This document shows positions 20,704 to 34,392 of a stretch of 64,000 bases of DNA, piece after piece. Source of the DNA: Roseibium album (GTDB taxonomy: Bacteria > Pseudomonadota > Alphaproteobacteria > Rhizobiales > Stappiaceae); NCBI RefSeq assembly GCF_001404515.1, contig NZ_CXWE01000002.1:124001-188000 (forward strand), given 5' to 3'. The position numbers and the translations under genes were made by a program. Each line of letters opens with the position of its first letter. The stretch's first letter is position 1. The notes below the pieces were generated by a model. The model saw only the letters and a program-made list of their open reading frames with translations. It was not told where the DNA came from and made no database searches.

Positions 20704-21459
20704 CTAGGCCACCCGAACTTCCAGATTGGCAAACAGCGTGGAAAATTCATCCGGAGGAACCCGATCGGTGACGAGGTAATCTCCGGGCTTCAGCGTAGGC
20801 TGACGAAGCACCGGTTTGCGGACCTGCGGCTCGAACTTCGAGTGATCGACTGCCATGATCGCGCGTCCCGCATTGGCCAGCATCGCACTCGCGATGTCGA
20901 CCTCGCACTGCTCGTGAACGAGAAAACCGTTCCGGGCATCAACAAGCGATGCGGACAGGAGCACGTAATCCACCTGCATCCGGTCTATGACGTCAAATGC
21001 CGAACGGTCAAAGGATGCTCCGTCGTGATCCCGTAGCTGTGTCCCGGCCATGGAGACATTGTTGCCCGGGATCATTGCAAGCGTGCTCGCGACATAGGCT
21101 GAGTTCGTGACAACGGTGAGTTCGCGCAGGCTGCGAAGGGCCTGTGCGACAAATCCGGACGTCGACCCGGTATCGATGGCAATGCTGTCGCCGTCCTTGA
21201 TGATCTTCACGACTTCTTCGGCGATCGCCACCTTGGCCTCGCGATTCAGGTTCATGCGGGCCAGATAGGGCAGGTCCGGTGCCGACTTGGTCGATACCAG
21301 TGCACCGTGCACCTTTTGCAGAGCCCCCCGATCGACCAACGGCCGCGAGACCCTCCGAATGGTCTGATCCGATACCCCAAGGATACGCGAAAGCTCCTGC
21401 ACGCTGACGGTGCCGCGCATATCCACTGTCTGTAAGAGCGTTGTTTCGTATTTCGACAT
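20704..21459 (-). CDS. DeoR-family repressor
   Basis: A 251-residue regulator. The N-terminal helix-turn-helix reads LSRILGVSDQTIRRVSRPLVDRGALQKVHGALV (residues ~22-55). The C-terminal DeoR sensor domain includes DGDSIAIDTGSTSGFVAQAL and VVTNSAYVASTLA, which normally bind a phosphorylated small molecule. That fits a locus rich in kinases. It is divergent from the first oxidase/kinase pair, and matching direct-repeat sites lie in front of both divergent units, so it is the likely local repressor of the whole 20.7-33.3 kb locus. Confidence 0.88.
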   Translation of the reverse strand: MSKYETTLLQTVDMRGTVSVQELSRILGVSDQTIRRVSRPLVDRGALQKVHGALVSTKSAPDLPYLARMNLNREAKVAIAEEVVKIIKDGDSIAIDTGSTSGFVAQALRSLRELTVVTNSAYVASTLAMIPGNNVSMAGTQLRDHDGASFDRSAFDVIDRMQVDYVLLSASLVDARNGFLVHEQCEVDIASAMLANAGRAIMAVDHSKFEPQVRKPVLRQPTLKPGDYLVTDRVPPDEFSTLFANLEVRVA

Positions 21460-21516
21460 GAGGCCTGTTTACACCAAAGTTCCTGGTCGAATAAGGCTAT
21501 TCTGCACCGCGAATTC

Positions 21517-21559
21517 AACAAAAATCAACAATACTATTGTGAAGATGTTGATTTTTGTT
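21517..21559. promoter_or_regulatory. Double DeoR-type operator
   Basis: Perfect 14-bp inverted repeat AACAAAAATCAACA (21517-21530) / its complement (21546-21559) separated by 15 bp, exactly between the divergent DeoR and oxidase genes. Each arm is itself a 10-bp-period direct repeat of TGTTGA (TGTTGATTTT followed by TGTT). Direct repeats one helical turn apart are typical of DeoR-family sites. A similar unit recurs at 25808. Confidence 0.65.
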
Positions 21560-21597
21560 AGGATTTGTTCCGACGGACAGCATGCGGACCTGCAAAT

Positions 21598-24015
21598 ATG
21601 ACCCAACACTCTGCCAAACATCTGATCATCGGCGGCGGCATCATCGGTTGCTCGATTGCCTATCATCTGACCCGAATGGGGGAGAGGGATGTGGTTCTTC
21701 TGGAACGCGCTGGCCTGACGGAAGGGGCGACCTGGCACGCGGCCGGTCTGGTCGGACAGTTGCGCTCGTCACGCAACACGACCCGCATGCTGAAGAAATC
21801 CGTCGAAATGTATGACCGCCTTCAGAACGAGGAAGGCATGCAATTCGACTGGAAGAAAACCGGCTCGCTCAGACTTGCGGCAACCACGGAGCGCCTGCTG
21901 GAGGCCAGGCGGCTGGCAACAATGGCACGCAGTTTCGATCTGGAAATGCAGATAGTCTCGCCCGGCGAAGCAAAGGATCTGTTCCCTCTGATCGAGGCAC
22001 GCGGCCTGGAAGGTGCAGCGTTCATTCCCTCTGACGGTTATGTTGATCCGGCCTCACTCTGCCAGGCCGTCGCCGGCGCTGCGCGTCGCCAGGGAGCCGA
22101 CATCCGCCAGGGGTGCGAGGTACGCGATTTTACCGTCTCAAACGGACGGATCACATCAGTCGAGACGAGCCAGGGAACATTCGAAGCAGATACGATCATC
22201 CTGGCAGCCGGCATGTGGAGCCGTGAACTTGGAGAAAAGCTGGGCATTCGTGTACCTGCCTGCGCAGTCGAACACCAATATATCGTTACCGAACCCACCG
22301 GAACCGAAGTCGGCCATTTCCCGACACTTCGGGATCCGGAACGTCTTGTGTACTACAAGCCGGATGTCGCCGGCCGCCTGGTCATTGGTGGCTATGAAGA
22401 AGGCACCCTTCCCTTCGGAGATCATGGTATTCCCGGATCTTTCGTGCGCCAGCTGCTGCCTGAAAATCTGGATCGCTTTCTGCCGTTGGCAAACCTTGCC
22501 AGCCAGGTGACACCAATTGTCAATGAAGTCGGCATCCGCCAGGTCATCAACGGTCCGATCCCCTATTCCGCGGACGGTGACTTTGTCATGGGCTGGCAAC
22601 CCGGCTTCGACAATCTTATGATGGCAACGGGATTTCTCTATGGCATCGCCGCCGGCGGCGGCGCCGGGGAGATGATTGCCGAATGGGTGGTTGAAGGACG
22701 CCCGTCGCTGGATCTCTGGCCCCTTGACGTGCGCCGCTTCGGACCGCATCACGGAACCCGGAGCTTCATGTATCCGCGCGCTGTCGAGCACTATGCCCAT
22801 CACTACAAGAAAAGGTATCCGGGACAGGAGCATGAAAGCGCCAGGCAACTGAGATTGTCGCCGCTCTACCAGAAACTCAAGGATCGCGGAGCTGTCTACG
22901 GCTCGAAGAACGGTTGGGAACGACCGCTCTGGTTCGCGCCTGACGGGGTTGAGCCGGTTGATCAGCTGGACTTCCTCGATCCAGGCTGGAAGAAATATGC
23001 CGCCGAAGAGCACAGGGCTGTGCGGGAGAGGGTCGCATTGATCGACCAGTCCAGCTTTTCGAAATTCGAGATCATCGGTGCCGACGCGCTCGATGCATTG
23101 CAGCAGATGGCCGTCTCCAACATGGACAAGCCGGTCGGCTCGGTCATCTATACGCAATTGTGCAACGGGTCCGGCGGCGTGGAGGCGGATGTGACAATCA
23201 TCCGCCTGGATCAGAACCGCTTCTATCTGGTGACCGGATCCGGTTTTGGCGTCCACGACAGCGACTGGGTCAGACGCAACCTGCCGGAGAATTCTTCTGT
23301 GCACATTGTGGAAGTCACGAGCGGTTATGCCGTGATCAACATTGTCGGTCCGCAGTCGCGCGATGTTCTGGCAACGGCTTCTGAAAGTGATGTCTCCAAT
23401 GAAGCCATCCCTTTTTCGACGATGAGGGAAATTGTCGTTGGCGCGGCGCCGGTACGTGCAGCACGGATCGGTTATGTCGGAGAACGCGGTTATGAACTGC
23501 ATGTCCCGACGGAATTTGCGGCTCATGTCTACGACACACTCTGGGCGGCCGGAGCAAAACACCGCATCGCCAATGTCGGATACCGGGCCATCGAGAGCCT
23601 TAGAATGGAAAAAGGCTATGTCTACTGGTCGGGTGATGTCACACCGGATTACACGCCGATCGAGGCAGGTCTCGGGTTTCGTGTTCACCTGAAATCCAAA
23701 GGCGATTTTCTCGGACGGCAGGTGTTGGAAGCACAAAAGAAGAATGGCATCGAACGCAGGCTGTGCACTTTCGTGACACAGGACCATCTGCCGCTCACGG
23801 GTGGCGAAACCATATTGCTGGGAGATCAGGTCGTCTCGTCGACGACCTCTGTCGGCTTTGGTTATACGGTGAACCGCACGATTGTGCGTGGTTATCTGGA
23901 CAAGGAGCATTGGGACCGGGCTGAATTCAGTCTGGAGGTTTTTGGCGAGCGTTACCCGGTCACGCAGGCGGAGAGCCCGCTCTATGATCCGGACGACACC
24001 GCGCTCAAGGGATGA
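21598..24015 (+). CDS. FAD/GcvT fusion oxidoreductase, dimethylglycine/sarcosine dehydrogenase-like (copy 1)
   Basis: An 805-residue two-part enzyme. The N-terminal DAO domain (to ~370) has the FAD motif IIGGGIIGCSIAYHL and ATWHAAGLVGQLRS; His47 in that motif matches the residue that covalently binds FAD in dimethylglycine and sarcosine dehydrogenases. A GcvT-like folate domain covers ~430-700 (SSFSKFEIIG; GYVGERGYELHVP; GYRAIESLRMEKGY), then a GcvT C-terminal barrel. The enzyme should oxidise an N-methyl group and pass the formaldehyde unit to tetrahydrofolate. ATG 21598 was chosen over an upstream TTG. It is followed closely by a choline-kinase-like gene. Confidence 0.9.
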   Translation: MTQHSAKHLIIGGGIIGCSIAYHLTRMGERDVVLLERAGLTEGATWHAAGLVGQLRSSRNTTRMLKKSVEMYDRLQNEEGMQFDWKKTGSLRLAATTERLLEARRLATMARSFDLEMQIVSPGEAKDLFPLIEARGLEGAAFIPSDGYVDPASLCQAVAGAARRQGADIRQGCEVRDFTVSNGRITSVETSQGTFEADTIILAAGMWSRELGEKLGIRVPACAVEHQYIVTEPTGTEVGHFPTLRDPERLVYYKPDVAGRLVIGGYEEGTLPFGDHGIPGSFVRQLLPENLDRFLPLANLASQVTPIVNEVGIRQVINGPIPYSADGDFVMGWQPGFDNLMMATGFLYGIAAGGGAGEMIAEWVVEGRPSLDLWPLDVRRFGPHHGTRSFMYPRAVEHYAHHYKKRYPGQEHESARQLRLSPLYQKLKDRGAVYGSKNGWERPLWFAPDGVEPVDQLDFLDPGWKKYAAEEHRAVRERVALIDQSSFSKFEIIGADALDALQQMAVSNMDKPVGSVIYTQLCNGSGGVEADVTIIRLDQNRFYLVTGSGFGVHDSDWVRRNLPENSSVHIVEVTSGYAVINIVGPQSRDVLATASESDVSNEAIPFSTMREIVVGAAPVRAARIGYVGERGYELHVPTEFAAHVYDTLWAAGAKHRIANVGYRAIESLRMEKGYVYWSGDVTPDYTPIEAGLGFRVHLKSKGDFLGRQVLEAQKKNGIERRLCTFVTQDHLPLTGGETILLGDQVVSSTTSVGFGYTVNRTIVRGYLDKEHWDRAEFSLEVFGERYPVTQAESPLYDPDDTALKG

Positions 24016-24026
24016 ACGGGGGAAAC

Positions 24027-24953
24027 ATGACTGAACATGCTGAAAAAGTACTCGAGGCACTGCGCTCTGCGCCGCAATTTGCACATGTCAATTCAGCAAG
24101 GCATGTCACGCGTCTCGGCGGCCTGACCAACCTGGTGCACCGTGTGGATCTTGCCGACCAGTCAGTCATCGTCCGCATTCCGGGTGAAAACACCGAAGAA
24201 TACATCGATCGCGCCGTGGAAAAGCACAACGCGGAAGCCGCGGCCGACGCCGGTGTCTCCGCCGATGTTCTTTATGCGGATGCTGCAACCGGCATCATGA
24301 TCACGCGCACGATAGACGGGATCGAAACCATGACCCCCGATCTTTTCAGGTCACGCACCGGTTCCCCGGGCCGCGCGGGGATGGCGCTGGCCAAGCTGCA
24401 CACTTCCGGCGAAACCTTCCGGTTTCGATTCGAACTTTTTTCCATGATCGATGACTACCTGAAGGTTCTTTCAACCAAGGATGTCTCGCTCCCGGAAGGC
24501 TACCAGGATGTCGTCGCAGCAGCGATGCCCATCGGAGACGTGTTGGCGGCTGCCGATCTGCCACTTGCTCCGTGTCATTGCGATCCGCTTTGCGAAAACT
24601 TCCTGGATGACGGCACGACAATGTGGATCGTCGACTGGGAATATTCCGGCATGAACGATCCATTGTGGGATCTTGGTGACCTTTCGGTCGAAGCCGGCAT
24701 GACCCCAGAACAGGACGCAGAGATGCTGGAGGCGTATTTCAAACGTGGTCCCACGGCGGCAGAAACGGGCCGCGTAGTGATCTACAAGGCCATGTGCGAC
24801 CTGTTGTGGACCCTTTGGGGGCTCATTCAACTTGCCGACAACAATCCTGCCGAGGACTTCTGGGCTTATGCGACCGGTCGGTTCGACCGTTGCCGCGCGT
24901 TGATGCAGGACCCTGCCTTCGATGCCCATGTGGCTGCCGTCAGGGCTGGTTGA
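24027..24953 (+). CDS. LicA-type choline/ethanolamine kinase-like phosphotransferase (copy 1)
   Basis: A 308-residue aminoglycoside-phosphotransferase-fold kinase. The catalytic loop is CHCDPLCENFL (near residue 185) and the metal loop WIVDWEYSGMNDPLWDLGDLS, which matches LicA-type choline kinases closely. It should transfer phosphate from ATP to the hydroxyl of choline, ethanolamine or a related amino alcohol. An ATG at 24012 overlaps the oxidase stop as ATGA; the ATG at 24027 has GGGGGAAAC ahead and is preferred. The 3' end overlaps the convergent phosphatase gene by 14 bp. Confidence 0.86.
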   Translation: MTEHAEKVLEALRSAPQFAHVNSARHVTRLGGLTNLVHRVDLADQSVIVRIPGENTEEYIDRAVEKHNAEAAADAGVSADVLYADAATGIMITRTIDGIETMTPDLFRSRTGSPGRAGMALAKLHTSGETFRFRFELFSMIDDYLKVLSTKDVSLPEGYQDVVAAAMPIGDVLAAADLPLAPCHCDPLCENFLDDGTTMWIVDWEYSGMNDPLWDLGDLSVEAGMTPEQDAEMLEAYFKRGPTAAETGRVVIYKAMCDLLWTLWGLIQLADNNPAEDFWAYATGRFDRCRALMQDPAFDAHVAAVRAG

Positions 24954-25713
24954 GCAAAGCCAGGATTTCGGCGTGCAGCTCCCGGGTTGCCGCTGTGACA
25001 GTTCGCCCGTCCGATGCCATTGTCAGCCGGTTGCCCTGCCAGTCGGTCATGATACCGCCGGCCGCTTCGACCACGGCGGAAACCGGCAGATAGTCATAGG
25101 GTTGCAGATCGTAGTCCACGACGGCATCCGCAAGCCCGCGTGCCACAAGCGCGTGCGGGTAGCAGTCAGCCGCCATCCTGCGCAACTGACTCGCACGAAC
25201 GAGGCGCTGAAATGCCTCAGGTTCGCGTACGGCCAGCTTGTCACCTTCATTGACAAAGAGACGTGCGCCATCCAGCGAACGGCATTCGCTGACCCTGATC
25301 GATGTCCCGTTGCAGGCGGCGTGCAGCCCCTCACCTCCTGAATAGACTTCATCGAGCGCCGGCATCCGGATGACACCCATTTTCGGACGTCCTTCGACCA
25401 GAAATCCAAGCAGCATTCCGAAAAGCGGCAATCCGGCAATGAACGACCGCGTGCCGTCAATCGGATCGATGATCCACATCTTGTCACCATCTCCGGTCTG
25501 GCCGAATTCTTCACCGAAGATCGCTTCACCCGGAAAGTTTCGTTGAATGCTGTCCCTGAGGGAATTTTCCGTTGCCTTGTCCGCGAGCGTGACCGGGCTT
25601 TGATCTGCCTTGGTTTCGGTTGCAGGATCATTCCGGAAATAGGCGAGACTGACAGCTGCGGCGTCTCCTGTGATCTCCAATGCCTTTTCCAGTCTGTCCG
25701 AATAATCCGGCAT
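24940..25713 (-). CDS. Inositol-monophosphatase-family phosphatase
   Basis: A 257-residue metal-dependent phosphatase. Motif 1 GEEFG (~residue 68) and motif 2 WIIDPIDGTRSF (~80-91) supply the lithium-sensitive metal site. The second metal segment reads VVDYDLQPYDYLPVSAVVEAAGG, a variant of the usual WD-x-AAG seen in HisN-type histidinol phosphatases. It hydrolyses small phosphate monoesters. Convergent with the kinase gene and divergent from the betaine-type importer, it probably removes phosphate from a pathway intermediate; histidinol phosphate is the main alternative, but no his genes are near. Confidence 0.86.
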   Translation of the reverse strand: MPDYSDRLEKALEITGDAAAVSLAYFRNDPATETKADQSPVTLADKATENSLRDSIQRNFPGEAIFGEEFGQTGDGDKMWIIDPIDGTRSFIAGLPLFGMLLGFLVEGRPKMGVIRMPALDEVYSGGEGLHAACNGTSIRVSECRSLDGARLFVNEGDKLAVREPEAFQRLVRASQLRRMAADCYPHALVARGLADAVVDYDLQPYDYLPVSAVVEAAGGIMTDWQGNRLTMASDGRTVTAATRELHAEILALLNQP

Positions 25714-25737
25714 ACTGTGAATCTCCCGTGTTTCTCA

Positions 25738-25827
25738 TGTTTTTTGTCTGTTGAATGAACGCTTAAGGCTCAAAATGTATCTAAAATCCACAAAAGTCGA
25801 ACCTAAATGTTGCTTTTTGTTGATTTA
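25738..25827. promoter_or_regulatory. DeoR-type direct repeats, second promoter
   Basis: Between the divergent phosphatase and importer genes. At 25808-25827 the sequence TGTTGCTTTT is followed directly by TGTTGATTTA, the same 10-bp direct repeat as at 21546 (13 of 14 bases match the arm there). A weaker copy, TGTT at 25738 and TGTTGAATGA at 25749-25758, lies nearer the phosphatase. Both support joint control of this region by the DeoR protein encoded at 20704. Confidence 0.55.
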
Positions 25828-25925
25828 TGCTGACAGTCTAGGGAGTGTTTTGCCAAGTTGGCTAGCTGCCGAGAGCGTGACGCATGCGCAGTTCCGTATT
25901 GGCAATTCTCGACAGGGAGGAAATT

Positions 25926-26858
25926 ATGAAGCGCGTTTCATTAGCACTGTCCGCCATGCTGGCCGTTGCGCCTGCACTCGCAGCCGAGTCCAGCGATCCG
26001 ATCAAACTTACTCTGCACGACTGGTCCGGCCAGTTGATCACGACCAAGCTCATGGGCGAAGTCCTGAAGGAAGCCGGATACAATGTTGAATATGTCCAGG
26101 CTGACTACATCGCCCAGTTCGCAGGATTGAAGACCGGCGACCTGCATGTCGCCATGGAAATCTGGGAAACCACCGGCCGCGAGGCAATGGATGAGGCATT
26201 CGCGACAGGCGACGTCGTTAATCTGGGTGAAACCGGTCTCCAGGCGATCGAGGAATGGTGGTATCCGGCCTACATGAAGGAGCGGTGCCCGGGCCTGCCG
26301 AACTGGGAAGCGCTGAAGGATTGCGCAGAAGAATTCTCCACGCCTGAAACAGCCCCCTTTGGCCGGTATCTCGGTGGTCCGGTTACCTGGGGTGGCTTTG
26401 ATGAGGAACGTGTCGAGGCTCTGGGACTGGACTTTGAAGTGGTCCATGCAGGCACGGATGCGGCTCTGTTCGCTGAACTGGAAGCAGCGTATCAACGGCA
26501 GGACCCGATCATCCTTTGGGTCTATGCGCCACACTGGGCGCCTGCAAAATACGATGGCGAATTCGTTGAATTCCCGCCGTTCTCGCCCGAGTGCTACAGC
26601 GACCCATCGGTCGGGGTAAACCCGGATGCAGCCTATGACTGCGGCAAGCCGCGGGGCCCGATCTGGAAAGTCAGCTGGGCAGGTGTTGCGGACAAGTGGC
26701 CCGGAGCCGCGAAGGCGATCGAGAACTTCAAACTCTCCAATGCCGACTATGGTGCCATGGTCACCGAAGTCGATCTCGACGGCAAGTCGGTCGACGATAC
26801 GGTTGCAGCTTGGATGGCTGACAACAAGGACACCTGGTCAGGCTGGATCGCCAAATAA
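25926..26858 (+). CDS. Glycine-betaine-type ABC substrate-binding protein (ProX/OpuAC-like)
   Basis: A 310-residue periplasmic binding protein. The Sec signal is MKRVSLALSAMLAVAPALAA, and a strong GGGAGGAAAT ribosome site precedes ATG 25926. The mature protein is rich in Trp (LHDWSGQ, EIWETTGREAMDEA, EEWWYPAYMKERCPGLPNW, APHWAPAKY), as expected for the aromatic boxes that hold quaternary ammonium groups. It also carries paired cysteines likely to form disulfides. The ligand is therefore probably a quaternary or methylated amine, but which one cannot be read from sequence. Confidence 0.88.
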   Translation: MKRVSLALSAMLAVAPALAAESSDPIKLTLHDWSGQLITTKLMGEVLKEAGYNVEYVQADYIAQFAGLKTGDLHVAMEIWETTGREAMDEAFATGDVVNLGETGLQAIEEWWYPAYMKERCPGLPNWEALKDCAEEFSTPETAPFGRYLGGPVTWGGFDEERVEALGLDFEVVHAGTDAALFAELEAAYQRQDPIILWVYAPHWAPAKYDGEFVEFPPFSPECYSDPSVGVNPDAAYDCGKPRGPIWKVSWAGVADKWPGAAKAIENFKLSNADYGAMVTEVDLDGKSVDDTVAAWMADNKDTWSGWIAK

Positions 26859-26876
26859 ACCCGTCCCATAATTCCT

Positions 26877-26920
26877 GCACGCACCAGCCTGAGTTTGGTG
26901 CGTGCCGGACACTTGTCCGG
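26877..26920 (+). repeat. Two tandem hairpins after binding-protein gene
   Basis: First hairpin: GCACGCACCA (26877-26886) with its complement at 26896-26905 and a 9-nt loop. Second: CCGGACA (26905-26911) with its complement at 26914-26920. They lie in the 117-bp gap between binding-protein and ATPase genes, with no T-run. Likely to protect the binding-protein mRNA or limit readthrough. Confidence 0.7.
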
Positions 26921-26975
26921 ATGACAGCCAAGACAAGTTTCCCGACCCCGGGAATAAACCTCCACCGAGGACTGG

Positions 26976-27989
26976 ATGACGAAGCCCGTAATTCTCGATT
27001 GCCGGAACGTATGGAAGCTCTACGGCGCACAGGCCGATACGTTTTTGAACACCAACCCTGACCCGTCCTCAGCAGATCTGGAAGCGGCAAATCTCATCGG
27101 GGCGGTGCGGGCGGTCAATCTCCAGATCCGGAAGGGCGAGATATTTGTCATCATGGGGCTGTCGGGCTCCGGCAAATCGACGATTGTGCGATGCCTGTCG
27201 CGGCTTGTGGATTCCACTGCTGGAGAAATCCGCTTTGAGGGTAAAGATCTTCTCAGCGCAAGCGAAGAAGAACTGATCCAGATCCGGCGCAAGAAGATGG
27301 GCATGGTGTTCCAGCAATTCGCGCTCCTGCCACACCTGACGGTCCTGGAAAACGCGGCTTTCCCCCTTGAAATTCAAGGCGTCGACAAGAAGACCCGTGA
27401 AGCACGCGCGCATGAAGTTGTGGAACTGGTGGGTCTCAAGGGGCGTGAAAGCTATTTCCCGCGTGAACTTTCAGGTGGTCAGCAGCAGCGTGTCGGCATT
27501 GCCCGCAGCCTGGCGGCCGAACCTGAAATCTGGTTTCTCGACGAGCCTTTCTCGGCGCTTGACCCGTTGATCCGCCGCGAAATGCAGGATGAATTCCTGC
27601 GTCTGCAAAACATCCTTCACAAGACGATTGTCTTCATTACCCATGATTTCGACGAAGCCATCCGTCTGGCAGATCGCATTGCAGTGATGAAGGACGGGAT
27701 CATTGAACAGGTCGCGACCCCAGAGGACCTCGTCCTGCAGCCTGCAACCGAATATGTGGCGGAGTTCACGCGGCATGTAAGCCGTGCGAAGGTGATACGC
27801 GCTGCCTCGGTGATGGAGCCCGTGAACGGCGACAGCTTCGCCGGTGAGGTTGCGCATGATGCCGTGATCGAGGTCATTGCGGATCCGGTGGAAGCCTCCG
27901 ACCTGCCTCACAAGGTCATGGAAGGCGACAGGCAGGTTGGTCAGATTTCCCGCAAGGCGGTGATTGATGTGCTGGTAGGGCGCAGATGA
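26976..27989 (+). CDS. Glycine-betaine-type ABC ATP-binding protein (ProV/OpuAA-like)
   Basis: A 337-residue ATPase. An extended N-terminus precedes Walker A GLSGSGKST (~residue 60), followed by the Q-loop MGMVFQQFALLPHLTV, signature LSGGQQQRVGIARSLA, Walker B IWFLDEPFSALDP and the switch FITHDFDEAIRLADRIAVM, all in the ProV style. The C-terminus keeps only about one CBS-like unit, so it is shorter than E. coli ProV (about 400 residues) and osmotic gating may be lost. Its stop overlaps the permease start as ATGA. Confidence 0.9.
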   Translation: MTKPVILDCRNVWKLYGAQADTFLNTNPDPSSADLEAANLIGAVRAVNLQIRKGEIFVIMGLSGSGKSTIVRCLSRLVDSTAGEIRFEGKDLLSASEEELIQIRRKKMGMVFQQFALLPHLTVLENAAFPLEIQGVDKKTREARAHEVVELVGLKGRESYFPRELSGGQQQRVGIARSLAAEPEIWFLDEPFSALDPLIRREMQDEFLRLQNILHKTIVFITHDFDEAIRLADRIAVMKDGIIEQVATPEDLVLQPATEYVAEFTRHVSRAKVIRAASVMEPVNGDSFAGEVAHDAVIEVIADPVEASDLPHKVMEGDRQVGQISRKAVIDVLVGRR

Positions 27990-29971
27990 TCCCCCGCGCT
28001 CTGAAATCAGACGCACTATTCTGGGGGGTGCTGTTCACAAGCACCTGGCTTTTATCGACTTATTCGTTTCAACTTTACAAGGCACTTGATGCCCGCTGGA
28101 TCGTCCGGTTTCCCAAAAGCTGGCAGTTGCCGCTCGAAAACCATATCAGCGAGTTCCTGGACTGGCTGGTCGGCAGTGCCGGATTCTATTTCTTTTCGTT
28201 CCGTGATCTCACCCGGGCCATTTCTGCAATGATCGAAGCCCCCTACCAGGTGTTGCGCAACCTGTTGGTCGAGGGGTTTACCAGCGGTGTCGGGGAGACC
28301 GCCGTTCAAGTGGCACCTGCGCTGAGCTGGATCGCGGTCATCGTGACGATCATGGCGGTCGGACACTATGCACGCGACTGGTTCCTGTCTGTTCTTGTCG
28401 GCGTCTGTTTTCTCTACCTCGCCGTCTTCGGACAGTGGGAAAGTGCCATGATCACGCTTGCCTCGGTCTTGATTTCCGTACCGATCGGGGTGGTTGGCGG
28501 CCTTCTTCTCGGCATTCTGGCATACCGGGTAGGCTGGTTCGAGCGCATATTGCGACCGATCCTGGACCTGATGCAGACCGTTCCGGTGTTTGCCTATCTC
28601 GTCCCCATCCTGATCCTGTTCGGCTTTGGTCCCGTCGCTGCGCTCGTCGCAACCGTGATTTATGCCATGCCGCCCATGGTTCGCATCACCATTGTTGCGC
28701 TGAATTCGGTTCCGAAGGAAGTGATCGAAGCCGGTCGCATGGCCGGGTGCCGCAATCGCCAGATGATGTGGAAGGTCCTTGTTCCTTCTGCAATTCCAAC
28801 GCTGATGGTTGGTGTCAATCAGGTGATCATGCTGACGCTGAACATGGTGATCATCGCTTCCATGATCGGCGCCGGCGGCCTCGGGTTCGATGTTCTCTCC
28901 AGTCTGCGCCGGCTGGATATCGGTGGAGGGATCGAGGCAGGACTTGGTATCGTGGCCATGGCAATCGCGCTCGACCGGGCAAGTCAGGCCTTTGCGAAAC
29001 GCAGCATGCGCCATCCCCTGGAAGGCAACATCCTGCAACGCCACCCATGGACCGGCACCGTCTTTCTGGTGATCGCTTCAACCTTGATCCTCGGACAGTT
29101 CGTACCGGCCGTTCAAACCTATCCGGACGCCCTCACGCTGACGACCGGCCCGTTCTGGTCGAATGCGATGGAATGGATCAACGTGAACTTCTTCGACACG
29201 TTCGAAGCCATAAAGACCGTCATCCTGCAGTGGTTGCTCATTCCGGTGAAGAAATTTTTCACAGGAATTCCATGGGCATGGGGAATTATCGCAACTGCCC
29301 TGATCGCCTGGAGGGTCGGTGGTTGGAAAATCGGGCTGCTCGCCGGTTTCCTGATGATGTTCATCGCAGCGTCGGGACTTTGGTCCAAGGCCATGGTGAC
29401 GATCTACCTGTGCGGTGTGTCGGTTCTGATCGCGACCATTATCGGCATTCCGCTTGGCATCTGGGCGGCCGAAAGCCCGCGGGCCGGCCGTGTCATTCTC
29501 GGGCTGATGGATACCCTGCAAACCCTGCCGAGTTTTGTTTACCTGATCCCGGTCGTCATGCTGTTCCGGGTCGGTGACTTCAGCGCGATGATCGCGGTGA
29601 TCCTCTATGCATTGGCGCCTGCGGTACGCTACGCGGCGCACGGCCTCAAGGAAGTCCCGCCAGCCTTGATCGAGGCGGGTCTTATGTCCGGCTGCACCCG
29701 TCGGCAACTGCTGTGGCGCATCAAGCTGCCACTTGCCACACCACACCTGTTCCTTGGCCTGAACCAGACCATCATGCTCGCGCTTTCCATGCTGGTGATC
29801 ACGGCGCTCGTGGGCACAAGGGATCTCGGCCAGGAAGTTTACATCGCACTGACCAAGGCGAACGCCGGGCAGGGCATTGTCGCCGGTCTGTCGGTGGCGT
29901 TCATCGCGATCATAACGGATCGGGTCATCAACGCGCTTGCATCCGGTCGGCGTGAAAGATTGGGGATCTAG
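27986..29971 (+). CDS. Fused double ABC permease, ProW-like
   Basis: A 661-residue membrane protein made of two ProW-type permease halves in one chain. Each half has its own EAA loop: EAGRMAGCRNRQMMWKVLVP near residue 248 and EAGLMSGCTRRQLLWRIKLP near 561. Each loop is followed by the same N-Q-x-IML-x-L-x-M segment. The usual ProW is about 350 residues and dimerises, so one copy of this protein could form the whole channel. An intact ATPase gene overlaps it by 4 bp and a kinase gene begins 3 bp after it. Confidence 0.9.
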   Translation: MIPRALKSDALFWGVLFTSTWLLSTYSFQLYKALDARWIVRFPKSWQLPLENHISEFLDWLVGSAGFYFFSFRDLTRAISAMIEAPYQVLRNLLVEGFTSGVGETAVQVAPALSWIAVIVTIMAVGHYARDWFLSVLVGVCFLYLAVFGQWESAMITLASVLISVPIGVVGGLLLGILAYRVGWFERILRPILDLMQTVPVFAYLVPILILFGFGPVAALVATVIYAMPPMVRITIVALNSVPKEVIEAGRMAGCRNRQMMWKVLVPSAIPTLMVGVNQVIMLTLNMVIIASMIGAGGLGFDVLSSLRRLDIGGGIEAGLGIVAMAIALDRASQAFAKRSMRHPLEGNILQRHPWTGTVFLVIASTLILGQFVPAVQTYPDALTLTTGPFWSNAMEWINVNFFDTFEAIKTVILQWLLIPVKKFFTGIPWAWGIIATALIAWRVGGWKIGLLAGFLMMFIAASGLWSKAMVTIYLCGVSVLIATIIGIPLGIWAAESPRAGRVILGLMDTLQTLPSFVYLIPVVMLFRVGDFSAMIAVILYALAPAVRYAAHGLKEVPPALIEAGLMSGCTRRQLLWRIKLPLATPHLFLGLNQTIMLALSMLVITALVGTRDLGQEVYIALTKANAGQGIVAGLSVAFIAIITDRVINALASGRRERLGI

Positions 29972-29973
29972 CA

Positions 29974-30849
29974 ATGTCTGAAACCGCAATTGCCCGCGCC
30001 GCGGCGCTTGGCTGCTTTTCCGATCCTCGGGACATCACTCCGCTGGGAGGAGGCATCACCAATGTCAATCTCATCGTGCGTGACGGCGACCGGCGCTTCG
30101 TTGTCAGGCTTGGCGATGACATACCCGAGCATGGTGTCATGCGATGGAACGAGCTGGCTCTGAGCCGCGCCGCCGAACGTGCCGGACTTTCGCCTGCGGT
30201 TGTCTACCAGGAGCCCGGTGTTCTGGTGCTGGACTTTCTTGAAGCAAAAACATTCGGGGAGGCCGACGTCAGGGAACCGGAAAACCTTCAAAGAATTGTT
30301 GCCCTGATCTCCAGGGTGCATCACGATCTTGGCGCCCACCTGACAGGACCGGTGCTGGCCTTCTGGCCATTCCAGGTCAATCGGACCTATGCCGCCCGCC
30401 TGAGTGCTGACCGGTCCCCTCATTCGGAAGTGCTGCCGGGTCTGATGAACACTCTGTCTGATCTCGAGGCAGCGGTCGGACCGGTCGATCTTGTTGTCGG
30501 TCACAATGATCTTCTTGCCGCCAATCTGCTCGATGATGGCGACAAACTGTGGCTGATCGACTGGGAATATGGTGGTTTCAATTCGCCTCTGTTCGATCTT
30601 GCCGGACTTGCCTCCAACAATGGCCTGACCGAATTGCAGGAACGCGCCATGCTCGAGCAGTATTTTGATGCCCGCCCCGAAACAAACTGGCGTGCCTACA
30701 AGGCCATGAAATGCACGTCCCTGATGCGTGAAACCCTTTGGTCAATGACCTCCGAAATCCACTCGGACCTGGACTTCGACTACGCCGCATACACAAGCGA
30801 AAACATGGACCGGCTGAACGCCGCCCTTTCCGAATTCCGTGAATTGTGA
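29974..30849 (+). CDS. LicA-type choline/ethanolamine kinase-like phosphotransferase (copy 2)
   Basis: A 291-residue kinase paralogous to the one at 24027. The catalytic loop is VVGHNDLLAANLL (~residue 170) and the metal loop WLIDWEYGGFNSPLFDLAGL; the N-terminal glycine-rich segment is LGGGITNVNLIVRDGDRRFVVRLG. The expected product is a phosphorylated amino alcohol. It begins 3 bp after the importer permease and is followed directly by the second oxidase, so uptake, phosphorylation and demethylation appear to be encoded on one transcript. Confidence 0.86.
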   Translation: MSETAIARAAALGCFSDPRDITPLGGGITNVNLIVRDGDRRFVVRLGDDIPEHGVMRWNELALSRAAERAGLSPAVVYQEPGVLVLDFLEAKTFGEADVREPENLQRIVALISRVHHDLGAHLTGPVLAFWPFQVNRTYAARLSADRSPHSEVLPGLMNTLSDLEAAVGPVDLVVGHNDLLAANLLDDGDKLWLIDWEYGGFNSPLFDLAGLASNNGLTELQERAMLEQYFDARPETNWRAYKAMKCTSLMRETLWSMTSEIHSDLDFDYAAYTSENMDRLNAALSEFREL

Positions 30850-30857
30850 GAGCCCTC

Positions 30858-33290
30858 ATGACACTCCCCTCATCTTCGAAGATCATTATCATTGGCGGCG
30901 GTATTGTCGGATGTTCCACGGCCTTTCATCTGGCGCAGATGGGTCAGGAAGTCCTGCTTCTGGAAAAGGCGGCCCTGACGTCCGGATCCACCTGGCATGC
31001 TGCAGGCCTGGTTGGTCAGCTGCGCTCCAACGCCAATATTACCCAGCTTCTTGGCTACTCGATCTCGCTTTATGACAGGCTGGAAGCAGAAACGGGGCAG
31101 GCCACCGGCTGGAAGATGAACGGCGGTCTCCGGCTCGCCTGCAATGAAGAACGCTGGACAGAGGTGAAACGGCAGGCGACTACGGCACACAGTTTCGGCC
31201 TGGACATGCAGCTTCTGACACCAAAGGAAGCGCAGGACCTGTGGCCGCTCATGGATATCAGCGATGTCGTTGGCGCCGCCTTTCTGCCGACGGACGGTCA
31301 GGCAAGCCCTTCGGACATCACCCAGGCCCTTGCCAAGGGAGCACGGGCTGGTGGTGCGAAACTGGTTGAAAACATGCCGGTCACCGAAATCCTGACCGAA
31401 CATGGGAAGATTACAGGAGTACGCACCGCGCAAGGCGATATTGCCTGTGAAAAGCTGGTTCTGTGCTGTGGCCAGTGGACACGCGAACTGGCAGCAACGA
31501 TTGGTGTCACGGTGCCCCTCGTGTCGGTCGAGCACCAATACATGATCACGGAAGCCTTTGGCGTCCCCTCGAACTTGCCGACGCTCCGCGACCCGGACCG
31601 GTTGACATATTACAAGGAGGAAGTCGGCGGACTTGTCATGGGCGGTTACGAGCCCAATGGCATTTCCTGGGCCGTCGGCGGTGTGCCGGATCCGTTCGAT
31701 TTCCAGCTTCTGGACAGCAATTTCGATCACTTCGAACAACTGGTGGAGCTGTCGTTGCCCCGCGTTCCCGCTCTGGAAAGCGTTGGCGTCAAACAACTGG
31801 TCAACGGACCGGAAAGCTTCACCCCGGATGGCAATTTCATTCTGGGCGAAGCACCCGAAATGGCGAATGTCTTCATCGGAGCCGGTTTCAATGCCTTTGG
31901 CATTGCAGCAGGCGGTGGCGCTGGAATGGCACTGGCTGAATGGGTTGCCAAGGGCGAACCACCCTATGATCTCTGGCCGGTTGATATCCGGCGCTTCGGC
32001 CGCCCGCACACGGACACGGACTGGGTGCGGACCCGCACACTGGAAGCCTATGGCAAGCACTACACAATGGCCTGGCCATCGGAAGAACATGACAGCGGTC
32101 GGCCCTGCCGGCGGTCTCCGCTTTACGACCGGTTGAAATCTGCCGGCGCCGTATTTGGTGAAAAACTTGGCTGGGAACGCCCCAACTGGTTCGCGGAGGC
32201 CGATGAGGAAGCGCGTGATATCTATACGTTCGAGCGACCGAACTGGCACGATCCGGTCGGGCGTGAACACAAGGCTGCCCGTGAGGCCGCCGTTCTGTTC
32301 GACCAGACGTCATTCGCCAAATTCATCCTGAAAGGGCCCGACGCGGAAGCGGCCCTGAGCTGGATTGCCGCCAACCGCGTGGACAAACCCGTCGGGTCCA
32401 TCATCTACACCCAGATGCTGAACGATCGAGGTGGCATTGAGTGTGACCTGACCTGTGTCCGCACGGCCATTGACGAATATTACATCGTCACCGGGACTGG
32501 CTTTGCCACGCATGACTTCAACTGGATAAATCGCAACATACCTGATGGGTTGAACGCCCAGCTTGTGGATGTCACATCGTCAAATGCCGTGCTTTCCCTG
32601 TTTGGCCCGAAGGCGCGCGACATATTGGCGGGCTGTACGCGCGCCGATGTCAGCGACGGGGCGTTCCCATTCGGCCAGGCGCGCCGCATCGGCATCGCCG
32701 GCTGCCCGGTGCTGGCGCTTCGCATTACCTATGTCGGGGAGCTCGGCTGGGAACTGCATCTGCCGACCGAATATGCGCAAACGGTTTACGACGCGTTGCA
32801 CGAGGCAGGAATGCCGCTCGGCATGAGAAATGCCGGTTACCGCGCAATTGAGACCCTGCGTCTGGAAAAGGGCTATCGCGCCTGGGGGTCCGATATCGGC
32901 CCTGATCATACACCCGACGAAGCCGGTCTCGGCTGGGCGGTCAAAATGAAGACCAATGCCGATTTCAAGGGGCGCAGTGCCGTTCAGGCGCAGCGCGAGG
33001 GCGGCGTGAAGAAAATGCTCGCAACGTTCACAACCGACGGCGACGTTATCCTGTCAGGCCGGGAAACGATCTATCGCGACGGCGAACGTTGTGGTTGGCT
33101 CAGCTCGGGAGGATATGGCCATACACTTGGAAAGAGTATCGGCATTGGTTATGTGCGCCATCCCGGCGGCGTGACCAGGGACCACGTCCTTGACGCCGGT
33201 TATGAGCTTGAGGTTGGAACCGAACGCGTGAAAGCGGAGGTTACGCTTGCACCACTTTACGACCCGAAAATGGCAAAGATCAAGACTTGA
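30858..33290 (+). CDS. FAD/GcvT fusion oxidoreductase, dimethylglycine/sarcosine dehydrogenase-like (copy 2)
   Basis: An 810-residue paralogue of the enzyme at 21598, with the same order of FAD-binding DAO domain (IIIIGGGIVGCSTAFHL), flavin-linking motif STWHAAGLVGQLRS with His47 in the identical position, GcvT folate domain (TSFAKFILKG; TYVGELGWELHLP; GYRAIETLRLEKGY) and GcvT C-terminal barrel. The two copies clearly share ancestry but differ along their length, so they may act on successive N-methyl groups. A GTG at 30846 overlaps the kinase stop; ATG 30858 is preferred. Confidence 0.9.
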   Translation: MTLPSSSKIIIIGGGIVGCSTAFHLAQMGQEVLLLEKAALTSGSTWHAAGLVGQLRSNANITQLLGYSISLYDRLEAETGQATGWKMNGGLRLACNEERWTEVKRQATTAHSFGLDMQLLTPKEAQDLWPLMDISDVVGAAFLPTDGQASPSDITQALAKGARAGGAKLVENMPVTEILTEHGKITGVRTAQGDIACEKLVLCCGQWTRELAATIGVTVPLVSVEHQYMITEAFGVPSNLPTLRDPDRLTYYKEEVGGLVMGGYEPNGISWAVGGVPDPFDFQLLDSNFDHFEQLVELSLPRVPALESVGVKQLVNGPESFTPDGNFILGEAPEMANVFIGAGFNAFGIAAGGGAGMALAEWVAKGEPPYDLWPVDIRRFGRPHTDTDWVRTRTLEAYGKHYTMAWPSEEHDSGRPCRRSPLYDRLKSAGAVFGEKLGWERPNWFAEADEEARDIYTFERPNWHDPVGREHKAAREAAVLFDQTSFAKFILKGPDAEAALSWIAANRVDKPVGSIIYTQMLNDRGGIECDLTCVRTAIDEYYIVTGTGFATHDFNWINRNIPDGLNAQLVDVTSSNAVLSLFGPKARDILAGCTRADVSDGAFPFGQARRIGIAGCPVLALRITYVGELGWELHLPTEYAQTVYDALHEAGMPLGMRNAGYRAIETLRLEKGYRAWGSDIGPDHTPDEAGLGWAVKMKTNADFKGRSAVQAQREGGVKKMLATFTTDGDVILSGRETIYRDGERCGWLSSGGYGHTLGKSIGIGYVRHPGGVTRDHVLDAGYELEVGTERVKAEVTLAPLYDPKMAKIKT

Positions 33291-33308
33291 GAAGCCGGGT
33301 TTCTCAAG
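33286..33308 (+). terminator. Hairpin at the end of the importer/oxidase operon
   Basis: Perfect 8-bp stem CTTGAGAA (33286-33293) / TTCTCAAG (33301-33308) with a GC-rich 7-nt loop, overlapping the stop codon of the second oxidase gene. No T-run follows, so it is a weak candidate for an intrinsic terminator. The next gene on the right is on the opposite strand. Confidence 0.4.
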
Positions 33309-33398: not shown

Positions 33399-34331
33399 TC
33401 ACTTGCACAGCCTGTTGACGTTTTGCACGATTTTTTCACTCTCCGCCGTGCAGGCGTCAACCAGCAGGTTGAGCCGGTCTTTCAGCGGGTTTTCATCATT
33501 GGCAAACAGTCCCCAGGCGTAGCTTATTTTTGCGGACAAGGGCCGAATCGACACGCCGTCAATCGGCACGCCCAGCGCGGTGACCGGGTCGCACAGGGCA
33601 ACGCCGAGGCCTGCCCGCGCGGCCATTGCCGCACTCAAGGAAGAATTGGTGGCAATTTCGGAGGATGGTTTGATCTTCTGCTTTTCAAATGCGCGATTGA
33701 TTGCGTCACGAATGCCATATCCATTGCAAATTGTTGCCAGCCGTTCGGTGTTGAAAATTGACAGAGGAATTGGCCCGTCGCCATCAAGACGGCTGCCTTT
33801 CTTGACCACTGCAACAACCAGCGATTCAAAGCGTGCAAGACACTTCAATTGATCATGGTCCCCTGGATAGGCGGAAAATCCCAGATCGGCCGTACGTTGA
33901 CGAAGGGCATGCAGAACCCGTTCGGAGGTCGTCGTTTCGACATGTACAAAATCGGGCAGAACATCCGAGACACGCGACAGCACAGGCCCCACCAGACCAG
34001 CCGACATTGTCGGGGTTGCGACGATATCTATGGCCGCAATTCTTTCGTCCCTGATTGCGTGCGCCCGTTCGGTCAACTGCGACAGGTTCGCCATGACCCG
34101 CTGCGATTCTTCGAAAAACTTGATCCCTTTCTCCGTGGGAGAGATTTTGGGTCCGTTGCGTTCAAAGAGCGCAAACCCCACACGCGCTTCCAGATCTCTT
34201 ACCATTCTCGTGACCGCAGGCTGGCTCACCGACAGCTTCTGGGCAGCAGCCGTCATGGATCCATATCGGACCACCGCAGCAAATGCTTCCATTGAGCGAA
34301 TGTCAGGTCGCCCATTATTCTTTGTTGACAT
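33399..34331 (-). CDS. LysR-family transcriptional regulator
   Basis: A 310-residue regulator with helix-turn-helix FAAVVRYGSMTAAAQKLSVSQPAVTRMVRDLEARVG and a co-inducer domain with IDIVATPTMSAGLVGPVLSR. The choice of ATG 34331 rests on homologue length; an in-frame ATG at 34364 is possible and neither has a strong ribosome site. LysR members that read opines (OccR, NocR) have this arrangement beside the genes they control. Here the divergent operon encodes an opine-dehydrogenase homologue and an importer. Confidence 0.87.
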   Translation of the reverse strand: MSTKNNGRPDIRSMEAFAAVVRYGSMTAAAQKLSVSQPAVTRMVRDLEARVGFALFERNGPKISPTEKGIKFFEESQRVMANLSQLTERAHAIRDERIAAIDIVATPTMSAGLVGPVLSRVSDVLPDFVHVETTTSERVLHALRQRTADLGFSAYPGDHDQLKCLARFESLVVAVVKKGSRLDGDGPIPLSIFNTERLATICNGYGIRDAINRAFEKQKIKPSSEIATNSSLSAAMAARAGLGVALCDPVTALGVPIDGVSIRPLSAKISYAWGLFANDENPLKDRLNLLVDACTAESEKIVQNVNRLCK

Positions 34332-34375
34332 ACTAGAGAACCTATCATTACGGTAAGCTATCATTGACGCATGAA

Positions 34376-34392
34376 TATGCAGAATTAGCATA
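34376..34392. promoter_or_regulatory. Probable LysR box
   Basis: Inverted repeat TATGC (34376-34380) / GCATA (34388-34392) with a 7-nt AT-rich centre, 45 bp upstream of the LysR start. The 7-nt centre matches the sites at 9867 and 18882. Nearby, CTATCATT occurs twice 16 bp apart (about 34342 and 34358). Confidence 0.45.

What the first reader, a model, noticed from the sequence alone, without database searches (positions are those of the whole stretch)
20704..33308. Candidate undescribed pathway: import, phosphorylation, folate-linked demethylation and dephosphorylation of a methylated amino alcohol
Seen: one DeoR gene, a betaine-type importer, two LicA-type choline/ethanolamine-like kinases, two FAD/GcvT demethylases with the conserved flavin-linking His, and an inositol-monophosphatase-family enzyme, tightly packed with 3-12 bp gaps or overlaps. 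Known: dimethylglycine and sarcosine dehydrogenases remove N-methyl groups onto tetrahydrofolate; LicA-type kinases phosphorylate choline or ethanolamine. Inferred: the demethylases act on a phosphorylated intermediate made by the kinases, and the phosphatase releases the product. I do not recall a described pathway with kinases and demethylases paired this way. The BetA/BetB oxidation route is absent here.
Basis: partly seen in the sequence, partly recalled or inferred. Interest (0 to 1): 0.78.

Follow-up and report, generated by a model that had tools for sequence, protein, structure and literature searches.

The report
Kinase-first demethylation of methylated ethanolamines
A conserved bacterial gene cluster appears to import N-methylated ethanolamines, add a phosphate as a chemical handle, and then strip the methyl groups onto folate with flavin enzymes; all of this is predicted from sequence and gene neighbourhood, and no enzyme activity has been measured.

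Summary
The cluster is real: a DeoR regulator, a betaine-type ABC importer, two LicA-type kinases (KIN1, KIN2), two FAD/GcvT demethylases (DMG1, DMG2) and an inositol-phosphatase-family gene, which lies on the opposite strand. The kinase-oxidase link is strong: a demethylase follows KIN2 directly in 75 of the 80 closest loci, mostly alphaproteobacterial, and pairing is nearly exclusive, KIN1 with DMG1 and KIN2 with DMG2. New evidence for a phosphorylated substrate: kinase-less relatives of DMG2 sit in 2-aminoethylphosphonate (AEP) clusters in 12 of 14 loci checked (one contig ends too early, one, L231, is a counter-example), and one AEP-cluster oxidase nests inside the DMG1 clade. AEP is the phosphonate analogue of phosphoethanolamine. 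KIN1 keeps all seven LicA choline-site residues tested; KIN2 swaps two (Trp to Glu, Glu to Asn) in every row. Best model: KIN1/DMG1 handle dimethylethanolamine, KIN2/DMG2 monomethylethanolamine, each demethylated as its phosphate ester; the phosphatase, where present, frees ethanolamine. Phosphorylating before demethylating is known from E. limosum MthK/MthB, with corrinoid enzymes. No activity is proven.

The parts
20704..21459 (-). DeoR/GlpR-family regulator, divergent from DMG1; the family usually senses phosphorylated metabolites (recalled)
   Evidence: Pfam DeoRC 116.7 bits; a DeoR-family hit of at least 30% identity in 40 of 54 KIN2 loci with 6 kb on both sides
21565..24015 (+). DMG1: FAD/GcvT demethylase, proposed to act on phospho-N,N-dimethylethanolamine; start may be 21598
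   Evidence: Pfam DAO+FAO_M+GCV_T+GCV_T_C; full-length DMG1-type gene is the 5' neighbour of 43 of 52 KIN1 genes; clade of 12 rows 100/99 that includes an aminoethylphosphonate-cluster oxidase
24012..24953 (+). KIN1: LicA-type choline/ethanolamine kinase with all seven tested choline-site residues; proposed dimethylethanolamine kinase
   Evidence: Pfam Choline_kinase 60.2 bits; LicA structures E 2.2e-33, 3DXQ E 4.5e-118; residues in 53 of 53 rows
24940..25713 (-). Inositol-monophosphatase-family phosphatase (HisN-like), proposed to release ethanolamine from phosphoethanolamine; optional part
   Evidence: Pfam Inositol_P 176.3 bits; TIGR02067 HisN 239.7 bits, below its 275 cut-off; opposite strand to KIN2 in 28 of the 28 loci (of 80) with a match of at least 35%
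25884..26858 (+). OpuAC-type periplasmic binding protein of the importer
   Evidence: Pfam OpuAC 171.7 bits
26976..27989 (+). ABC importer ATPase, betaine/proline/choline family
   Evidence: TIGR01186 328.2 bits, just over its 326.6 cut-off
27986..29971 (+). ABC importer permease, two fused BPD_transp_1 units
   Evidence: Pfam BPD_transp_1, two stretches; TIGR03416 426.4 vs 363, with two matched stretches
29974..30849 (+). KIN2: LicA-type kinase with altered pocket (LicA Trp251->Glu253, Glu213->Asn215); proposed monomethylethanolamine kinase
   Evidence: Pfam Choline_kinase 57.7 bits; alignment A1; substitutions in 96 of 96 rows
30846..33290 (+). DMG2: FAD/GcvT demethylase, proposed to act on phospho-N-methylethanolamine
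   Evidence: Pfam DAO+FAO_M+GCV_T+GCV_T_C; a DMG directly 3' of KIN2 in 75 of 80 loci; shares a 31-row 100/98 fork with the aminoethylphosphonate-cluster clade

Best explanation
The cluster is a catabolic module for N-methylated ethanolamines. An OpuAC-type ABC importer brings in N,N-dimethylethanolamine and/or N-methylethanolamine. KIN1 (choline-type aromatic cage) phosphorylates the dimethyl form; its partner DMG1 oxidises one N-methyl group and passes it to tetrahydrofolate, giving phospho-N-methylethanolamine. KIN2 (cage with a Glu in place of a Trp, suited to a less methylated, N-H-bearing amine) phosphorylates free N-methylethanolamine, and DMG2 removes the last methyl, giving phosphoethanolamine. 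The phosphate replaces the carboxylate that dimethylglycine and sarcosine enzymes use as an anionic handle. The phosphatase, where present, then releases ethanolamine, which could enter a gamma-glutamylethanolamide-type route. DeoR probably senses a phosphorylated intermediate. Shown here: gene content, conservation, pairing, phylogeny and pocket residues. Inferred: every substrate, the order of steps, the ethanolamine fate and the regulatory signal.
For: (1) Pairing: 75 of 80 KIN2 loci have a DMG directly 3'. Over 107 loci, KIN2 is followed by full-length DMG2 in 79 of 94 cases (4 more with short matches), KIN1 is preceded by full-length DMG1 in 43 of 52 (1 more short); the only mixed full-length pair is L121. 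(2) Phosphorus-bearing relatives: kinase-less DMGs 48-52% identical to DMG2 have a DeoR in 14 of 14 loci checked and AEP genes in 12 of 14 (annotations); the own-genome member has PhnS2/T2/U2 over cut-off. An Aminobacter AEP cluster has a GbcA-like Rieske protein, a DMG nested in the DMG1 clade and a DMG in the AEP clade, suggesting tri- to di- to monomethyl steps. Human DMGDH falls outside the 43-row fork (100/100) that holds DMG1, DMG2 and the AEP clade. (3) Pockets: KIN1 keeps all 7 LicA residues tested in 53 of 53 rows; KIN2 keeps 5 positions (one as Thr or Ser) and swaps 2 in 96 of 96 (residues from PMC4364537). (4) Ethanolamine link: EutH over cut-off (663 vs 575) directly 3' of KIN2-DMG2 in Nitratireductor. 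(5) Order: all 12 KIN1 genomes of the family have KIN2 and DMG2 in the cluster, while 21 others have a KIN2-like gene directly 5' of a DMG without KIN1; the 13 of these 21 that I could classify are KIN2 plus DMG2. (6) Electron and C1 outlets: ETF, FolD and PurU beside DMG2 in Salipiger. (7) Precedent of phosphate before demethylation (PMC12155760).
Against: No enzyme assay, growth or expression data. One AEP-type oxidase (L231) has no AEP gene in the 7 kb of contig downstream but sugar-type ABC genes (read by eye). The clade also holds oxidases with no phosphorus link, including an own paralog next to Xsc, a sulfonate enzyme, so the phosphorus inference is by kinship and context. The phosphatase is missing from 29 of 54 loci with 6 kb on both sides and the own genome has no EutB, so the product's fate is unclear; a glutamine-synthetase-like match is in 4 of 118 kinase loci, two of them only 30-31%, and the full set is in L079 and L146. 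EutH is seen in one locus of 118. KIN1-like kinases also occur without an oxidase, some beside SAM methyltransferases or HAD phosphatases (L061, L065, L066, L133, L151). Assigning dimethyl/monomethyl to DMG1/DMG2 rests on one Aminobacter cluster, pocket residues and a distribution asymmetry. Residues shared by DMG1, DMG2 and the AEP clade after the FAD motif are also in most other clade members (R in 5 of 6, Q in 4 of 6), so they are not proof of phosphate binding.
Confidence: 0.62

Rival explanations
1. Same chemistry, other scaffold: the pathway phosphorylates and demethylates a different N-methylated amino alcohol (for example a longer-chain or sugar-derived one), not an ethanolamine.
For: No substrate is measured; four Rhizobium-type loci (L144, L148, L152, L160) put KIN2-DMG2 beside a sugar-type ABC importer and genes that look like hexuronate catabolism (identified by eye); kinases of this superfamily are versatile (recalled).
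Against: All seven tested LicA choline-site residues kept in KIN1; EutH next to KIN2-DMG2; sister oxidases tied to 2-aminoethylphosphonate, a two-carbon amine; betaine-type importer.
Confidence: 0.15
2. Choline is the entry substrate: KIN1 makes phosphocholine, an enzyme outside the cluster removes the first methyl, and DMG1/DMG2 remove the other two.
For: KIN1 keeps the choline-site residues; the importer family takes betaines and choline; E. limosum demethylates phosphocholine (PMC12155760); Aminobacter has a GbcA-like Rieske protein upstream of the analogous phosphonate oxidases.
Against: In 118 kinase loci no MttB-like match and only one partial 32% GbcA-like match; FAD/GcvT enzymes are not known to act on quaternary amines (recalled); the genome has BetA elsewhere.
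Confidence: 0.1
3. The oxidases are ordinary dimethylglycine/sarcosine dehydrogenases and the kinases serve a separate purpose such as phosphocholine for lipids or surface decoration.
For: Domain architecture and top solved structure are DMGDH.
Against: Nearly exclusive kinase-oxidase pairing with overlaps or short gaps; human DMGDH groups with other own paralogs, not with DMG1/DMG2; phosphonate-linked sisters; no cytidylyltransferase among the ten proteins scanned.
Confidence: 0.08
4. The kinases detoxify or modify an antibiotic- or guanitoxin-like amine, as APH or GntI enzymes do.
For: GntI is the best NCBIfam hit of both kinases.
Against: GntI scores are far below cut-off (147 and 143 vs 357); importer and demethylases point to catabolism; LicA residues conserved.
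Confidence: 0.02

Closest known systems
E. limosum MthK/MthB/MthC/MthA choline demethylation (PMC12155760; abstract, passages and sections 10 and 11 read)
   Same: A choline-kinase-like enzyme phosphorylates an amino alcohol before the methyl goes to tetrahydrofolate; the authors propose that the phosphate mimics a carboxylate
   Different: Anaerobic, cobalamin methyltransferases, quaternary substrate, one methyl only; here FAD/GcvT oxidases, tertiary and secondary amines proposed, two kinase-oxidase pairs
Dimethylglycine dehydrogenase / dimethylglycine oxidase (PDB 5L46, 4P9S, 1PJ5)
   Same: Near-full-length alignment and the FAD motif; 34-36% identity to human DMGDH (hand-copied sequence)
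   Different: Separate clade from human DMGDH, kinase-coupled, phosphorylated substrate proposed
LicA choline kinase of S. pneumoniae (PDB 4R77; PMC4364537, passages read)
   Same: Profile match, catalytic motif, all seven tested choline-site residues in KIN1
   Different: KIN2 altered at 2 of 7 tested positions; catabolic rather than surface-decoration context
PbfB/PbfC/PbfD FAD enzymes of N-methyl-aminoethylphosphonate catabolism (PMC10590968; passages read)
   Same: FAD enzymes with the DAO domain acting on an N-methyl amine that bears a phosphorus oxyanion
   Different: They release methylamine and phosphonoacetaldehyde; 'GcvT' and 'tetrahydrofolate' do not occur in the paper's text; no kinase step in the passages read
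Glycine betaine catabolism (GbcAB, DMGDH, sarcosine oxidase; recalled)
   Same: Stepwise N-demethylation onto folate
   Different: Carboxylate substrates, no phosphorylation

Membership tests
DMGDH-type FAD/GcvT oxidases | DAO + FAO_M + GCV_T + GCV_T_C architecture | tested here: met
   both proteins, all four above cut-off
DMGDH-type FAD/GcvT oxidases | TWHAAGL motif whose His links the flavin (recalled) | tested here: met
Dimethylglycine dehydrogenase proper | Groups with characterised DMGDH | tested here: not met
   human DMGDH lies outside the 43-row fork 100/100 that holds DMG1 and DMG2 (one characterised sequence only)
Dimethylglycine dehydrogenase proper | Activity on dimethylglycine | not testable with these tools
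   needs enzymology
LicA-type choline kinases | Choline_kinase profile above cut-off | tested here: met
   60.2 and 57.7 vs 29 bits
LicA-type choline kinases | Choline-site residues (LicA T29, D176, Y197, E213, W251, W254, Y268; V178 not tested) | tested here: inconclusive
   KIN1 7 of 7 in 53 rows; KIN2 5 of 7 in 96 rows
LicA-type choline kinases | Phosphorylates choline | not testable with these tools
   needs assay
MthK/MthB pathway | MttB-superfamily and corrinoid proteins | tested here: not met
   none among the cluster proteins; no MttB-like match in 118 kinase loci
Pbf FAD enzymes | DAO-type oxidase yielding phosphonoacetaldehyde and methylamine | tested here: inconclusive
   DMG1/DMG2 carry GcvT domains, which points to methyl transfer to folate; products untested, Pbf proteins not compared by sequence
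GntI guanitoxin kinase | NF041256 cut-off 357 | tested here: not met
   146.7 and 143 bits
HisN histidinol-phosphatase | TIGR02067 cut-off 275 | tested here: not met
   239.7 bits
Betaine/choline-type ABC importer | OpuAC binding protein, ProV-type ATPase, ProW/ChoW-type permease | tested here: met
   OpuAC 171.7 bits; TIGR01186 328.2 vs 326.6; TIGR03416 426.4 vs 363; the binding protein is below the ProX and choline-binding NCBIfam cut-offs

The most novel reading that the evidence does not exclude
DMG1, DMG2 and their sisters form one clade of folate-linked demethylases specialised for N-methylated 2-aminoethyl oxyanions: phosphate esters made on purpose by paired kinases (this cluster), phosphonates (N-methylated 2-aminoethylphosphonate, demethylated to AEP for PhnW/PhnA/PhnY) and probably sulfonates (N-methylated taurine, beside Xsc). 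The kinases exist to give neutral amino alcohols the oxyanion handle this enzyme class needs, so two kinase-oxidase pairs handle the dimethyl and monomethyl stages.
Probability: 0.45. Interest if true: 0.8.

Novelty: new variant of a known kind. Interest (0 to 1): 0.68.

Why it matters
If true, it gives a route by which marine and soil bacteria use methylated ethanolamines as carbon, nitrogen and one-carbon source, explains why choline-kinase-like genes sit beside FAD/GcvT genes annotated only as 'FAD-dependent oxidoreductase', and offers a general rule (add an oxyanion handle, then demethylate) reached independently by corrinoid and flavin enzymes. It also predicts a folate-linked demethylation route for N-methylated aminoethylphosphonates, different from the published PbfB/C/D reactions, which release methylamine.

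Tried and rejected
Considered and rejected: one long operon (the phosphatase is on the other strand; binding protein-ATPase gap 117 bp); LysR and the flavoprotein at 33399-36143 as parts (kept in 3 of 11 relatives); GntI or HisN identity (below cut-offs); EutBC as the ethanolamine sink (no EutB in the genome; EutC not searched). A claim that the residues after the FAD motif are a phosphate-binding signature was dropped, because other clade members share them. The first tree held only one AEP-linked oxidase (L172), inside a four-row set of own paralogs, and drew DMG1-type rows from Kiloniellales and Rhodospirillaceae apart from the main DMG1 group; it was rebuilt with 12 more rows, dropping four long-branched rows (L179, L175, L180, the L074 aminomethyltransferase) and thinning 12 DMG rows; long branches remain and the root is a midpoint.

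Limits of the counts. Rows include near-duplicates, because some genomes were reached by two routes (for example L041 and L087). In one search rows with a stop or a short alignment were dropped. DMG1/DMG2 types are best tblastn hits, not tree positions. The 14 AEP-type loci are all nine of at least 67% identity in the family search plus five plasmid records picked from long lists. Control: 8 loci of distant kinases (30-37% to KIN1: L052-L058, L060; L054 is a 4.7-kb contig) have no DMG homolog in the stretch fetched.

Literature: 10 searches of the held open-access library listed no paper that I recognised as describing kinase plus FAD/GcvT demethylation; I judged from titles and abstract starts, and subscription papers and preprints are not held. 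No structure prediction was run; the fold is already clear from sequence and coordinates could not be measured.


Full report
1. What is there. The window is part of a 6.9-Mb genome. The closest cluster found, 95-99% identical over the cluster proteins, is in Labrenzia sp. DG1229 (L087; handle G048 has a contig of the same length). By strand and spacing there are four blocks: DeoR (-); DMG1-KIN1 (+, 4-nt overlap); the phosphatase (-, convergent with KIN1 and divergent from the binding protein); and binding protein-ATPase-permease-KIN2-DMG2 (+, one 117-bp gap, then 4-nt overlaps or a 2-nt gap). The genome has 20 GcvT-domain matches and 3 kinases found with KIN1 at E<=0.001; the third, on C5, has no DMG match in 20 kb around it (L053).

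2. Conservation. KIN1 orthologues (70-96%) occur in 11 of the 86 other genomes of the family. In all 11 a DeoR, both oxidases, both kinases, the phosphatase and the importer are together; in 3 (L049-L051) DMG2 has moved to the other side of DeoR, and that DeoR is only 37-39% identical. One further stretch (G065, L059) has the KIN2-DMG2 pair alone. Combining hits, at least 30 of 87 genomes have a KIN2-like gene directly 5' of a DMG, 9 of them KIN1 genomes; the other 3 KIN1 genomes are the rearranged ones. Class-wide, 12 of 384 other genomes have a KIN1 homologue at E<=1e-40. Seven of these have a DMG1-type gene beside it (one, G249, reads with an internal stop), and all seven also have KIN2, six of them as an adjacent KIN2-DMG2 pair. 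Over all 12, KIN2 is in 11 and an adjacent pair in 9.

3. Pairing. KIN2 is followed directly by a DMG in 75 of 80; of the other five, one contig ends there (L153) and four lack it (L105, L122, L133, L151). Among 54 loci with at least 6 kb on both sides: DMG2 49, DeoR 40, permease 36, binding protein and ATPase 35 each, phosphatase 25, KIN1 20. Over 107 loci, KIN1 goes with DMG1 (5' side, 43 of 52) and KIN2 with DMG2 (3' side, 79 of 94), with a single mixed full-length pair (L121). Two KIN1 genes pair with a short oxidase match (L067, L068); the L068 protein is a DAO-only oxidase. Few other gene families recur near the module, so the core is small.

4. Which substrate? Kinases: LicA of S. pneumoniae binds choline with Y197, W251, W254, Y268, V178, E213, T29 and D176 (PMC4364537, passages). 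V178 was not tested. For the other seven, mapped through the alignments, KIN1 keeps all in 53 of 53 rows; KIN2 keeps five (T29 is Thr, or Ser in 3 rows) but has Glu for W251 and Asn for E213 in 96 of 96 rows. A cage with an acid on its wall suits an amine with N-H bonds; this is inference. Context: in Nitratireductor sp. OM-1 the order is DeoR / KIN2-DMG2-EutH, with EutH above its curated cut-off. In three Shinella-type plasmids a metal/formaldehyde-sensitive repressor follows DMG2; the one scanned is below the FrmR cut-off. In Salipiger ETF, FolD and PurU follow DMG2, the expected outlets for electrons and one-carbon units, then an N-formylglutamate amidohydrolase, a glutamine-synthetase-like gene, an aldehyde dehydrogenase and an iron alcohol dehydrogenase, as would fit a gamma-glutamylethanolamide route like that of Streptomyces GlnA4 (PMC6529630, search listing only). 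Relatives of these four follow the module in Cognatishimia (L146) and lie together on another part of this genome (L229). Against: EutB is absent here and this context is rare.

5. Why phosphorylated? Kinase-less relatives of DMG2 (50-52% in the plasmid rows listed; 48% for the own paralog) are DeoR-linked oxidases in 2-aminoethylphosphonate clusters. I checked 14 loci: the own paralog on C18, eight relatives in the family, and Ruegeria, S. meliloti, two Aminobacter and a Roseateles plasmid. A DeoR match is present in all 14, no kinase match in any, and AEP transport or phnW/phnA/phnY genes in 12. Of the two without, L235 ends right after the oxidase, but L231 holds 7 kb downstream with no AEP gene, so it is a counter-example (also 63, 69-71, 73, 77, 78). 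Aminobacter niigataensis carries a GbcA-like Rieske oxygenase (358 bits, below the 670 cut-off), a reductase, one oxidase that nests inside the DMG1 clade and one in the AEP clade. The tree puts DMG1 (12 rows, 100/99), DMG2 (16 rows, 100/99) and the AEP clade (9 rows, 100/100) in one 43-row fork (100/100) that excludes human DMGDH and four own paralogs. AEP differs from phosphoethanolamine by one oxygen. A Paracoccus relative has no kinase annotated nearby but sits with DeoR, a HisN-like phosphatase and a PhnT/PhnU-like importer, the last two below their cut-offs, as if the phosphorylated amine were imported ready-made. Another own paralog (L170) lies with an MttB-like gene (below cut-off) and Xsc (above cut-off), which suggests N-methylated taurine. 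The common chemical feature would be a 2-aminoethyl oxyanion. This is kinship plus context, not proof.

6. Order of steps. KIN1 without KIN2 and DMG2 was not seen in the family (0 of 12 KIN1 genomes), while 21 genomes have a KIN2-like-DMG pair without a KIN1 orthologue; the 13 of these that could be classified are KIN2 and DMG2. That asymmetry fits KIN1/DMG1 feeding KIN2/DMG2. In 118 kinase loci no MttB-like match and only one partial GbcA-like match was found, so the route probably starts at the dimethyl stage.

7. Known work. Phosphorylating choline before demethylation was described in 2025 for the anaerobe E. limosum: MthK makes phosphocholine, MthB/MthC/MthA pass the methyl to folate, and the authors suggest the phosphate stands in for a carboxylate (PMC12155760; abstract, passages, sections 10 and 11). 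I saw no report of the same logic with flavin enzymes in the library I could search; the library lacks most subscription journals and preprints. PbfB/C/D enzymes (PMC10590968, passages) oxidise N-methyl-AEP to phosphonoacetaldehyde and methylamine, not to AEP.

8. Verdict. I rate the phosphorylated-methylethanolamine model at 0.62 and file it as a new variant of a known kind: known enzyme families, known general trick, new combination and probably a new pathway.

Noticed in passing
L172 (G000:C18:43000-55000), L213, L214, L215+L220, L216, L221, L230, L232-L234, L236, L237: DeoR-linked FAD/GcvT oxidases inside 2-aminoethylphosphonate clusters; Aminobacter adds a GbcA-like Rieske protein and a DMG1-type oxidase. 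Suggests folate-linked demethylation of N-methylated AEP to AEP, distinct from PbfB/C/D chemistry.
   Followed up: partly
L170 (G000:C8:284000-302000): Class III aminotransferase, regulators, two FAD/GcvT oxidases flanking an MttB-like gene, then Xsc, acetate kinase and (by eye) a formate-dehydrogenase-like gene: looks like breakdown of N-methylated taurine (taurine betaine).
   Followed up: partly
L176 (G000:C14:35000-50000): A second set of two FAD/GcvT oxidases next to a gene that looks MttB-like by eye; substrate unknown.
   Followed up: no
L231 (G061:C110): An AEP-type FAD/GcvT oxidase with its DeoR but, downstream, a ROK-like regulator and sugar-type ABC genes (by eye) instead of phosphonate genes: a counter-example to the AEP linkage.
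   Followed up: partly
L065, L066, L133, L151: KIN1-like kinases without an oxidase, beside a SAM methyltransferase (L065, L066, and by eye a different one in L151) and/or a HAD phosphatase (L066, L133, L151): a different, perhaps biosynthetic, use of the same kinase.
   Followed up: partly
L085 (Paracoccus methylovorus plasmid p1): DeoR, HisN-type phosphatase, ABC importer, Zn-dependent hydrolase and two tandem phosphotransferases next to a urease cluster, with no oxidase annotated between them: another kinase-phosphatase set.
   Followed up: no
L067 and L068: KIN1 paired with a short oxidase match; in L068 this is a DAO-only oxidase without GcvT, which would release formaldehyde instead of charging folate.
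   Followed up: partly
L217 (Paracoccus denitrificans plasmid): FAD/GcvT oxidase with DeoR, HisN-like phosphatase and PhnT/PhnU-like importer but no kinase annotated nearby; may import an already phosphorylated methylamine.
   Followed up: partly
L161 (Rhodobacteraceae bacterium UBA1957): KIN2-DMG2 lies next to phosphonoacetaldehyde dehydrogenase and phosphonoacetate hydrolase genes, both over cut-off.
   Followed up: partly
window 33399-36143: LysR gene and flavoprotein (Pyr_redox_3) downstream of the cluster, kept beside it in 3 of 11 relatives; function unknown.
   Followed up: partly
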